From: Sphingopyxis sp.
GTDB taxonomy: Bacteria > Pseudomonadota > Alphaproteobacteria > Sphingomonadales > Sphingomonadaceae
Assembly (NCBI GenBank): GCA_013821905.1
Contig: PNJO01000010.1
Coordinates: 1-34,245 of the forward strand
DNA: 34,245 bases
Reading direction: 5' to 3'
Shown: piece after piece, positions 162 through 26,705 of the stretch
Numbering within the stretch: the stretch's first letter is position 1
How the letters are laid out: each line of letters begins with the position of its first letter
Position numbers and translations under genes: made by a program
The notes under the pieces: model-generated
Databases searched by the model: none
The model's input: only the letters and a program-made list of their open reading frames with translations
What the model was told of the DNA's origin: nothing

Positions 162-262
162 CCCCTCCCGCTTGCGGGAGGGGTTAGGGGAGGGCCGTTC
201 CCTCCAGTCATCGTCAGCGGGACAGGCCCTCCCCCGGCCCCTCCCGCAAGCGGGAGGGGAGA
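162..262. repeat. REPIN-like paired-hairpin repeat, copy A
   Basis: Two copies of a palindromic hairpin face each other in inverted orientation. The left unit (about 162-195) and right unit (222-262) each contain the palindrome CTCCCGCTTGCGGGAG or its complement plus an adjoining GGGGAGGG/CCCTCCCC tail. The 26-nt middle is not palindromic. The right 41 nt match positions 26128-26168 with one mismatch, so this is a dispersed family. Two REP units in inverted orientation are the architecture of REPINs/BIMEs, which REP-associated tyrosine transposases are thought to spread; no such transposase is in the window. The last bases (GGGAGGGGAGA) lie directly before the next ATG and act as its Shine-Dalgarno. 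Confidence 0.85.
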
Positions 263-1480
263 ATGGGAGATCTTCCAGTCATCATCGTCGGCGGCGGCCC
301 CGCCGGCATGGTCGCGGGACTGCTGCTCGCGCGGGCCGGCGTGCGCGTGACCGTGCTCGAAAAGCATGCCGATTTTCTCCGAGATTTCCGCGGCGACACC
401 GTGCACCCTTCGACACTCGAGTTGTTCCATGAAATCGGGCTTCTCGAAGACCTGCTCAAGGAACCGCACGCCGCGATCGACACGATGACGCTCAATCTGC
501 TGGGTGGGCGTTATACGATCGCGACAATGAAGCACCTGCCCGTCGCGGCGCGCTTTGTCGCCATGATGCCACAATGGGATCTGCTCGATTTCATCGCGGG
601 ACAGGCAGGGCGCTACCCGACCTTCGACCTGCGAATGTCGACCGAGGCCACCGGGCTGACCGGTGACGACAGGGGCCGCGTCAATGGCGTGACCCTGGCG
701 AGCGGCGAAACCCTGCCCGCGCGGCTCGTGATCGCCGCCGACGGCCGCCGCTCGGTGCTGCGCGATGCCGCCGAGCTGCCGCTCGAAGTCCTGGGCGCGC
801 CGATGGACGTGCTCTGGTTCCGCGTCCCCGTCCCGGCTGGCATGGACATGTCGGAAGTCGCGCTCGGCACGATCGACCGGGGCGGAATGGTCGTCGCAAT
901 CCCGCGAGGCGACTATTGGCAATGCGCTGAAATCATCGGCAAGGGCGGATTCGCGCCGATCGAGGCGCGGGGCATCGCGGCCTTCCGCGAACGGATCGTC
1001 GAGATCGTGCCGGGCCTCGCCGCCGGGATCGACGCCGTCCAGAGCTTCGACGACGTCAAACTGCTCTCGGTCGCACTCGACCGGCTGACGCGCTGGTCGC
1101 GCCCCGGGCTGCTCGCGATCGGCGACGCGGCGCACGCCATGTCGCCCGTCGGCGGCGTCGGAATCAACCTTGCAGTGCAGGATGCGGTTGCGGCCGCGAA
1201 CATCCTCGCTGCGCCGCTCGCCGCCGGCGCCGACCCCGATCCGCTGCTTGCAAAGGTGCAGGAACGGCGCTGGAAGCCGACCACGAAGATGCAGGCGCTT
1301 CAACGGATGGCGCATCAACGCGTCGTCGAGCCGATGCTGCGCGGCGAAATCACCCATGTGCCGTTCGCGGTGCGCTTGCTCGACGCCGTCCCGCTGCTTC
1401 GCCGCATTCCGGGCCGCATCCTCGGCCTCGGCTTCGGCCGCCAGCATGTCCAATCCCCGCTTGCGAAAGACCTCCCATGA
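263..1480 (+). CDS. FAD-dependent monooxygenase (UbiH/PHBH-type fold), 405 aa
   Basis: A class A flavoprotein monooxygenase expected to hydroxylate an aromatic or related substrate with NAD(P)H and O2 in the cytoplasm. An N-terminal Rossmann dinucleotide motif GGGPAG lies at residues 10-15, the mid DG motif (AADGRRSVLR) at about 158-167, and the FAD-ribityl GD motif GDAAHAMSPVGGVG at 287-300. Length is normal for the family. The ATG at 263 sits 5 nt after a GGAGG that belongs to the upstream REPIN-like repeat, which decides the start. The stop overlaps the next gene's ATG (ATGA at 1477-1480), so the two flavoproteins are translationally coupled. The substrate cannot be read from sequence. No membrane segment marks it as a ubiquinone-pathway enzyme, and ubiE/ubiB lie far away on the opposite strand. 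Confidence 0.88.
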   Translation: MGDLPVIIVGGGPAGMVAGLLLARAGVRVTVLEKHADFLRDFRGDTVHPSTLELFHEIGLLEDLLKEPHAAIDTMTLNLLGGRYTIATMKHLPVAARFVAMMPQWDLLDFIAGQAGRYPTFDLRMSTEATGLTGDDRGRVNGVTLASGETLPARLVIAADGRRSVLRDAAELPLEVLGAPMDVLWFRVPVPAGMDMSEVALGTIDRGGMVVAIPRGDYWQCAEIIGKGGFAPIEARGIAAFRERIVEIVPGLAAGIDAVQSFDDVKLLSVALDRLTRWSRPGLLAIGDAAHAMSPVGGVGINLAVQDAVAAANILAAPLAAGADPDPLLAKVQERRWKPTTKMQALQRMAHQRVVEPMLRGEITHVPFAVRLLDAVPLLRRIPGRILGLGFGRQHVQSPLAKDLP

Positions 1481-24817: not shown

Positions 24818-25375
24818 CTATTCGCCGGGCTGGCGCAACTTCATCGCGGCGAGCGATCCGACATTGTCGGGGATATGGTCGTCCTCGACCTCGTCGGCGG
24901 CTTCGCTCGCGACGCCCGTCGATCCGAAACCGCCCGCGCCGCGCGCGGTTTCGTCCAGCGTCTCGACCTCGGCAAAGGCGGCGCGCTGGACGGGCGCGGG
25001 AACGAGCTGCGCGATGCGGTCGCCGCGCTTGATGTCGAAGGGCTCGTCGCCGAGGTTGGCGAGGATCACCTTCACTTCGCCGCGATAGTCGCTGTCGATC
25101 GTGCCCGGCGTGTTGAGGCAGGTGATGCCATGCTTGAGCGCGAGGCCCGAGCGCGGGCGGACCTGCACTTCATAGCCGACGGGGATCGCCATCGCGAAAC
25201 CGGTTGCGACCGCGTGGCGCGTGCCGGGACGGATCGTCAGCGTCTCGGCCGCGACGACGTCCATCCCCGCCGCGCCATCGCTGGCATAGGCGGGCAGGGG
25301 CAGGCCGCCGCCGTTGGGCAGCCGCTGGATGGCGATTTCAATCTCTTTCGAGGGGGAGGCGGCTTTCGAGCTCAT
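24818..25375 (-). CDS. dut: dUTP diphosphatase (dUTPase), 185 aa
   Basis: It hydrolyses dUTP to dUMP and PPi as a trimer. All five motifs are visible: AGMDV (36-40), PRSGLA (74-79), GTIDSDYRG (91-99), GDRIAQLV (118-125) and the glycine-rich motif [10 protein letters not shown] (145-154). Most bacterial dUTPases end just after motif V; here a 31-residue, partly acidic tail ([16 protein letters not shown] and onward) follows. The ATG at 25375 lies inside the end of coaBC (38-bp overlap). The coaBC-dut order is common in proteobacteria. Confidence 0.96.
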
Positions 25376-26705
25376 CGGCGATCTTTTCCATCAATTTGCG
25401 GGCGACGGCCTGTTTGGGCAGCCGGTCCCAGCTATCTACGCCCGCTTTGCTAACGATATGCACCCGGTTCGTCTCGCCCCCCATCGGGTCGGCGGAGACG
25501 TCGTTGGCGACGATCCAGTCGCAGCCCTTGCGCGCCAGCTTGGCCTCGGCATGCGCGATGACGTCGTTGGTCTCGGCGGCAAAGCCGATCAGCAGCGGCG
25601 GGCGCTGCGCGCTTTTCGCAAGGCCGGCGAGAATGTCGGGATTTTCGGCGAGCGCGAGCGGCGGGACCGCGCCGCTGCCGTCCTTCTTGATCTTTTGCGG
25701 CGCGGTGTCGGCGGCGCGCCAGTCGGCGACCGCGGCGACCATGATCGCGGCATCGACGGGCAGGCTGGCCTCGACCTCGGCCGCCATTTCGCGCGCGGTC
25801 TCGACATCGACGCGGGTCACGCCGGGCGGTGTGGACAGCGGGACCGGGCCCGCGACCAGCAGCACCTCGGCACCGGCCTCGGCGGCGGCGGCGGCGATGG
25901 CAAAGCCCTGTTTCCCGCTCGACCGGTTGGCGATGTAGCGCACCGGGTCGATCGGCTCGTGCGTCGGGCCCGCGGTGACGAGGATGCGGCGGCCGAAGAG
26001 CGGGCGGTGGTTGGCGGGTGCAAAATCGGGCTGGCCGTCAATGTGCCCCTCCCGCTTGCGGGAGGGGCTAGGGGAGGGCGTGTCGGTAGAGAAACGAGAG
26101 TCGTCTAATGGTAAGACTAACGACGCAACAGGCCCTCCCCCGACCCCTCCCGCAAGCGGGAGGGGAGAAGAAAGCGCCGCCTCGATCGCCGCCTTGATCG
26201 CTTCGGGCTCGGGCAGGCGGCCGGGGCCATATTCGCCGCACGCCATCTCGCCCTCGTCGGGCTCCATTACCGTCACGCCGTCGCCGCGCAGCGTGGCGAC
26301 GTTGCGCCGCGTCGCGGCGTGCAGCCACATGCGCACGTTCATCGCGGGTACGGCGAGCACCGGCTTGTCGGTCGCGAGCAGCAGCGTCGTCGCGAGATCG
26401 TCGGCGATGCCCGCGGCCATCCTGGCGAGCAGGTCGGCGGTTGCGGGCGCGACGACGACCAGATCGGCCTCGCGGCTGAGCTGGATATGCCCCATCTCGA
26501 CCTCGTCCTTCAGGTCGAAGAGGCTGGTATAGACCTTGTTCTCGCTGAGCGCGGCGAGCGTCAGCGGGGTAACGAACTGCTCGCCCGCGCGCGTGATGAC
26601 GCAGCGCACTACCATGCTCGATTTGCGGAGCAGCCGGACGAGTTCGATCGCCTTATAGGCCGCGATGCCGCCGCCGATGATCAGGAGGATGCGGGGAGCG
26701 GCCAT
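25338..26705 (-). CDS. coaBC: Bifunctional phosphopantothenoylcysteine decarboxylase/phosphopantothenate-cysteine ligase with in-frame repeat insertion, 455 aa
   Basis: It catalyses two steps of coenzyme A synthesis. The N-terminal CoaC flavoprotein domain has GGGIAAYKA (11-19), the PAMNVRMW motif (120-127) and the cysteine loop [15 protein letters not shown] (153-167). The C-terminal CoaB ligase domain has [17 protein letters not shown] (241-257), [15 protein letters not shown] and [10 protein letters not shown]. Between them, residues 181-220 are encoded by a REPIN-like repeat (26046-26168, 123 nt = 41 codons) read in frame as low-complexity [18 protein letters not shown] sequence. This explains the length of 455 rather than about 400-415. 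The start ATG 26705 has AGGAG 7 nt upstream. All catalytic motifs are intact, so the enzyme is probably active. Confidence 0.95.
26046..26168. repeat. REPIN-like paired-hairpin repeat, copy B, inside coaBC
   Basis: Left unit 26046-26079 and right unit 26128-26168 are inverted copies of the hairpin palindrome CTCCCGCTTGCGGGAG with GGGGAGGG-type tails. The right unit differs from 222-262 of copy A at one position, and the left unit from 162-195 at one. The 48-nt middle differs wholly from copy A. The element is 123 nt, a multiple of three, and has no stop in the coaBC frame. Confidence 0.88.

What the first reader, a model, noticed from the sequence alone, without database searches (positions are those of the whole stretch)
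26046..26168. REPIN-like repeat inserted in frame between the CoaC and CoaB domains of coaBC
A 123-nt element (41 codons) with two inverted hairpin units is read straight through by the coaBC frame, adding residues 181-220 at the flexible interdomain linker while every catalytic motif on both sides remains intact. The same element occurs as an intergenic copy at 162-262. Palindromic elements inside coding sequence are known from Rickettsia (RPEs), but REPINs are normally extragenic. Here a mobile hairpin has become protein sequence in an essential CoA enzyme.
Basis: partly seen in the sequence, partly recalled or inferred. Interest (0 to 1): 0.78.

Follow-up and report, generated by a model that had tools for sequence, protein, structure and literature searches.

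The report
Hairpin repeat inside an essential enzyme gene
A short repeated hairpin DNA sits, in frame, inside the linker of the coenzyme A enzyme CoaBC in a Sphingopyxis bacterium, and related species carry the same or unrelated hairpin repeats at that spot and in other housekeeping proteins, so the case is real but belongs to a known kind of event.

Summary
Window 26046-26168 (minus strand) holds two inverted 22-nt palindromes inside coaBC, read without a stop as codons 180-220 between two intact domains. The genus is Sphingopyxis. Of 75 genus genomes with a readable linker, 15 carry a two-unit insert: 9 the window's allele (A1), 2 the same family in another layout (A2), 4 unrelated families (B in 3, C in 1). 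G183 keeps a one-unit footprint; 59 have 72-105 nt linkers. Eight of 105 family genomes outside the genus also carry two units. Families A and B also sit in frame in Mfd (the window's genome too, family A) and CarA; family A in ValS and UvrA of one genome. The model makes the insert disordered linker. The A1 arms hardly vary while their spacer has drifted. A1 carriers are not one clade but most share a spacer, suggesting allele exchange or loss rather than re-insertion. 'REPIN' fits by shape only: no Y1 transposase was found in 20 of 25 genomes, some of high copy, and none of seven found is flanked by this repeat. In-frame REPs are in print (Rickettsia; Di Nocera 2013, including Sphingopyxis alaskensis). 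New here is the repeated occupation of the same few sites by unrelated families.

The parts
25338..26705 (-). coaBC, 455 aa: CoaC domain about 1-178, inserted linker, CoaB domain from about 235
   Evidence: Pfam Flavoprotein 5-174 and DFP 238-418; best solved relative M. smegmatis CoaBC 6tgv
26046..26168 (-). in-frame palindromic element (family A, allele A1), codons 180-220
   Evidence: model pLDDT under 50 at residues 185-224
26046..26067 (.). palindrome unit CCCCTCCCGCTTGCGGGAGGGG (downstream unit in the coaBC sense)
26144..26165 (.). palindrome unit CCCCTCCCGCAAGCGGGAGGGG (upstream unit in the coaBC sense)
26068..26143 (-). 76-nt spacer; includes inner inverted segments 26071-26078 / 26133-26140 and a stretch shared with coaBC of other A1 carriers but, read by eye, with no other element of this genome that was fetched
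162..259 (.). intergenic family-A element with a different spacer; units 162-183 and 238-259
263..1480 (+). gene with an FAD-binding (monooxygenase-type) domain whose ATG follows the GGGAGGGGAGA end of the intergenic element

Best explanation
A non-autonomous palindromic element, present in tens of copies in most Sphingopyxis, entered the flexible CoaC-CoaB linker of coaBC in an ancestor. Copies that kept the frame and had no stop survived, because the linker tolerates about 35 extra disordered residues. The resulting alleles have since been exchanged or replaced between species and occasionally trimmed in frame. The same process has put elements into Mfd, CarA, ValS and UvrA. Shown: the element, its copy number, the open frame, intact domains, relatives without it, other families at the same place. 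Inferred: that the peptide is made, that it is close to neutral, how the element moves, and that alleles move by recombination.
For: element and intact domains; multi-copy, reversed control 0; relatives with and without it; A1 not one clade on the flank tree; shared spacer; arms conserved; 8 of 105 family genomes outside the genus with two units; families B and C multi-copy in hosts, reversed control 0; Mfd; CarA, ValS, UvrA; 70 (low-confidence linker between two mostly confident domains).
Against: No protein or RNA data. No recombined tract is visible in the flanks; only the 33-nt tail behaves so in some pairs (L047-L049, L053-L047), and on average A1-A1 tails are not closer than plain-plain ones (0.274 against 0.221). 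The near-invariance of the arms is more than mere tolerance predicts. Open frames are hardly commoner in the 18 two-unit elements of this genome than in mononucleotide shuffles (3.39 against 3.19 of six), so the element is not specially fit for coding. Part of the plain linker is missing at the insert, so a simple insertion does not explain the junction.
Confidence: 0.85

Rival explanations
1. The insert is kept for a function in the message: its stable hairpin slows or uncouples translation between CoaC and CoaB, and in some alleles its GGGAGGGG end followed by a start codon lets CoaB be translated on its own.
For: Insert RNA -98.1 kcal/mol, z -10.3. Allele A2 reads GGGAGGGGAGAAATG in frame before CoaB, and 4 of 9 A1 alleles (L046, L047, L049, L051) GGGAGGGGGACTTG in frame. 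Elsewhere in the genome such ends lie a few nt before start codons of genes with Pfam domains.
Against: In the window's own allele the TTG at that spacing is out of frame. 59 of 75 genus genomes have a short linker without such an insert. Start codons of ORFs of 100 aa or more are not clearly enriched near element ends: 15, 11, 11 and 14 per 15-nt bin.
Confidence: 0.1
2. It is a REPIN in the strict sense, moved by a RAYT transposase encoded in the cell.
For: Two inverted palindromic units in 18 of 34 elements, many copies. The five genomes of the 25 in which a Y1_Tnp was found all have many copies (55-79).
Against: No Y1_Tnp in 20 of 25 genus genomes tested, among them the 112-, 87- and 68-copy genomes (the 129-copy genome G209 was not among the 25). 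None of the seven Y1_Tnp loci read (L180-L186) holds a family-A unit.
Confidence: 0.07
3. Ordinary linker divergence or an assembly error that happens to be palindromic.
For: Linkers of this protein vary much in length in the family, 17-660 nt in 105 genomes.
Against: Genome-wide identical units, the same allele in 9 assemblies, relatives with plain linkers, and other palindrome families at the same place.
Confidence: 0.02

Closest known systems
Intragenic GTAG/CGTC REPs (Di Nocera et al. 2013, PMC3733652; section 15, the first of two parts of section 17, and passages seen)
   Same: Palindromes, often dimers, within genes of replication, repair and RNA metabolism, including uvrA and tRNA synthetases; Sphingopyxis alaskensis among the hosts (tRNA synthetases, TruB); CGTC type has no dedicated transposase; flexible linkers or loops proposed as neutral sites
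   Different: No GTAG or CGTC within 8 nt of any of 52 family-A units; coaBC and mfd are not named in the main text (the supplementary list of intragenic REPs could not be opened); the section read reports a shared site only for recB of two Xanthomonas species
Rickettsia palindromic elements (RPE; seen through passages of PMC2229807 and PMC3733652)
   Same: Palindromic element of about 105-146 bp translated in frame inside conserved proteins; Gmk with an RPE is reported as translated and active
   Different: Different host; sequence not compared here; no product tested here
REPINs (Bertels and Rainey 2011, PMC3116915; passages seen)
   Same: Inverted pair of short palindromes, tens of copies
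   Different: No RAYT link found; coding copies present
Intragenic enterobacterial small mobile sequences (Delihas 2007, PMC2759123; search listing and abstract start seen, and its account in passages of PMC2229807)
   Same: Small repeats reported to carry reading frames fused in frame to genes
   Different: Different repeats and hosts

Membership tests
REPIN | two REP units in inverted orientation with a short spacer | tested here: met
   18 of 34 elements have two units, this one included
REPIN | associated with a RAYT (Y1) transposase flanked by the same repeat | tested here: not met
   none of seven Y1_Tnp loci flanked by family A; 20 of 25 genomes without Y1_Tnp. Own assembly 90% complete
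REPIN | repetitive and predominantly extragenic | tested here: inconclusive
   19 frames read through an element with 70 aa or more on each side; only CoaBC and Mfd have Pfam domains on both sides. The other 32 elements were not each shown to be intergenic
GTAG or CGTC REP superfamilies | GTAG or CGTC tag at one end of the unit | tested here: not met
   0 of 52 units have either tetranucleotide, on either strand, within 8 nt outside the 18-nt core. The family-E insert of L021 does read CGTC before its palindrome
Rickettsia palindromic element | palindromic repeat in frame in conserved protein genes | tested here: met
   It works like it; membership is not claimed
MITE | target-site duplication | not tested
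   the empty site is not a clean join, so the ends are uncertain

The most novel reading that the evidence does not exclude
A small set of linkers and loops (CoaBC, Mfd, CarA, probably others) are standing docking sites in sphingomonads: unrelated palindrome families enter the same place again and again, the resulting cassettes are swapped between species, and the hairpin arms are held identical by DNA-level correction although they are coding sequence.
Probability: 0.35. Interest if true: 0.65.

Novelty: new member of a known kind. Interest (0 to 1): 0.5.

Why it matters
It turns a single oddity into a replicated natural experiment: the same linker with no insert, with several unrelated inserts, and with a deletion footprint, in close relatives. 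This allows direct tests of how mobile hairpins become protein, how much extra linker an essential enzyme tolerates, and why coding hairpin arms stay unchanged.

Tried and rejected
Rejected: assembly artefact (same allele in 9 assemblies). Rejected: other long read-through frames at family-A elements as coding copies. One search lists 19 frames with 70 aa or more on each side of an element; all 19 were scanned with Pfam (coaBC and L176 by their start-to-stop or listed frame). Only CoaBC and Mfd have domains on both sides; ArgJ, HisS-type, an amidohydrolase, a zinc-ribbon protein and a prohead-protease-type protein have a domain on one side; the rest none. Rejected: special openness of the element in all frames. 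Not supported: a recombined tract in the flanks of A1 carriers. The start-codon idea was tested and is not clearly enriched. Literature searches. No listed title or abstract start tied these repeats to coaBC, and no held paper contains the two core strings or the peptide searched; the supplementary tables of PMC3733652 could not be opened.

Rows dropped before counts. Genus: of 80 genomes, G190 had no coaBC match, and G184, G194, G210 and G221 had split or partial genes, leaving 75. Family: of 149 genomes, 143 matched, 3 of them in the genus (own, G042, G122); of the 140 others, 107 were fetched, L045 and L295 lacked one half, leaving 105; 33 were not fetched, most because the listing gave no coordinates. 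Spacer comparison: L048 and L052 left out (short spacers). One search gave 54 places but listed only the first ones; the stretches fetched hold 52 units at up to two mismatches. Mfd: 77 of 80 genomes matched, 30 loci read. CarA: 80 of 80 matched, 30 loci read.

Full report
What is there. The coaBC gene lies at 25338-26705 on the minus strand (455 aa). Between its two domains (Pfam Flavoprotein 5-174, DFP 238-418) codons 180-220 are made of an element with two 22-nt palindromes in inverted order and a 76-nt spacer. As RNA the region folds into one long stem at -98.1 kcal/mol (z -10.3). In the AlphaFold model both domains are mostly confident, residues 185-224 are under pLDDT 50, and pTM is 0.52, so the relative placement of the domains is unsure. 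The best solved relative is M. smegmatis CoaBC, 6tgv, where the matched CoaC and CoaB parts are about ten residues apart (177 to 188).

The element is a repeat. The core palindrome occurs 44 times exactly and 54 times with up to one mismatch in the 3.35 Mb assembly; the reversed control has no match. In the stretches fetched there are 34 elements with 52 units, 18 of them two-unit. Spacers differ between elements; by eye the coaBC spacer has no second copy among them. In 80 genus genomes the exact count runs from 0 to 129, with at least one in 76. Two of the 34 elements are shown to lie in genes with domains on both sides (CoaBC, Mfd); the others were not each resolved.

It is not a strict REPIN on present evidence. 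One Y1_Tnp gene was found in the own genome; the repeats around it are of another kind. Of 25 genus genomes tested 20 have none, including those with 112, 87 and 68 copies. Against this reading, the five that have one all hold many copies (55-79), and G209 with 129 copies was not tested. No family-A unit lies in any of the seven Y1_Tnp loci read; one (L184) holds a family-C core. The own assembly is 90% complete.

Relatives. Named loci show that the genus is Sphingopyxis. CoaBC was matched in 79 of 80 genus genomes, and 75 gave a readable linker. Fifteen carry a two-unit insert: allele A1 in 9 (window, G157, G216, G208, G174, G161, G185, G156, G195); family A in another frame and orientation (A2) in 2 (G175, G189); family B in 3 (G042, G211, G187); family C in 1 (G215). 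G183 has a one-unit footprint (84 nt). The other 59 have linkers of 72-105 nt; one of them (G155) holds a degenerate core at up to 4 mismatches, the rest no core. Outside the genus, 105 family genomes were read: 8 have two units of families B, C or E (L018, L020, L021, L024, L025, L229, L238, L249; in L020 the two are direct copies), L242 has an 18-nt inverted repeat with one recognisable unit, and three single-core hits (L038, L279, L280) are weak or chance. Among the named loci, L084 holds a further palindromic insert, family D, and L087 a family-C pair. Long acidic linkers of other genera (over 300 nt) are a different matter. Families B and C are multi-copy in their hosts, with no match to the reversed control; D and E were not tested for copy number.

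Other proteins. In the own genome a second in-frame copy lies in Mfd, between the UvrB_inter and CarD/RID domains. In the genus this part of Mfd was matched in 77 of 80 genomes. Of 30 loci read, 18 carry a two-unit insert in frame at the same loop (11 family A, 7 family B), L207 (G209) holds two family-A units where the frame seems broken, L205 looks degenerate, L208 keeps one family-B core, 8 are plain and L206 could not be read. CarA was matched in 80 of 80 genomes, but in seven (own, G190, G194, G197, G198, G212, G221) only weakly, so CarA itself was not found there. Of 30 CarA loci read, 23 carry an insert between the two domains (18 family A, 5 family B), 6 are plain and 1 could not be read. 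In G156 family A also lies in UvrA between UvrA_inter and UvrA_DNA-bind, and in ValS at or inside the anticodon-binding domain.

History. On a quick tree of coaBC flanks the 9 A1 carriers need 9 changes, at least 7 forced by starred branches, and one A1 clade is rejected (p-AU 1.1e-47). Seven of the 9 have a spacer that aligns (19% mean difference), while the nearest 300 nt of each flank differ by 11-12%. This fits old alleles exchanged or replaced among species better than repeated insertion, but no recombined tract shows in the flanks, and the tail after the insert supports exchange only in some pairs.

Hairpin arms. Among the 9 A1 alleles the arms differ by 2.0 and 2.3%, at third positions by 3.2 and 0%, against 28 and 26% at third positions of the flanks. 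Against this, 3.6% of 22-nt windows of the flanks are as conserved. L053 shows one matching change in both arms, but also an unmatched one, and L047 and L049 have a change in one arm alone. Correction between arms, or conversion from other copies, is a likely cause (inference).

Literature. PMC3733652 describes REPs inside genes in several species, including tRNA synthetases and TruB of S. alaskensis, and CGTC REPs without a dedicated transposase. RPE in Rickettsia is the classic case (passages). The kind is therefore known. The repeated use of one linker by unrelated families across a genus, in three proteins, I did not find in the searches named in Tried and rejected.

Noticed in passing
window 238-265: The end of the intergenic element (GGGAGGGGAGA) stands as a Shine-Dalgarno-like sequence right before ATG 263. 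Similar element ends lie 6-10 nt before start codons of genes with Pfam domains RuvC, Formyl_trans_N, GATase and NAD_binding_11, though starts are not clearly enriched overall.
   Followed up: partly
L207 (G209 mfd): In G209, which has the most core palindromes (129), the mfd frame appears broken at the insert; an indel and an assembly error are both possible.
   Followed up: no
L180 (own genome contig C12): A Y1 transposase gene with repeated GGAATTACGGTG.CAGTTTACT-like sequences around it, a different repeat family (by eye).
   Followed up: no
L217, L221, L222, L224 and other long linkers: In many Sphingomonadaceae the CoaBC linker is 300-660 nt and acidic, with recurring GLL.S.I.R and APPTD motifs seen by eye; this looks like a separate conserved element of the linker.
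   Followed up: no
L179:1127-1846 (-), own genome contig C28: A single family-A unit lies just before or at the start of a prohead-protease (Peptidase_S78) domain.
   Followed up: no
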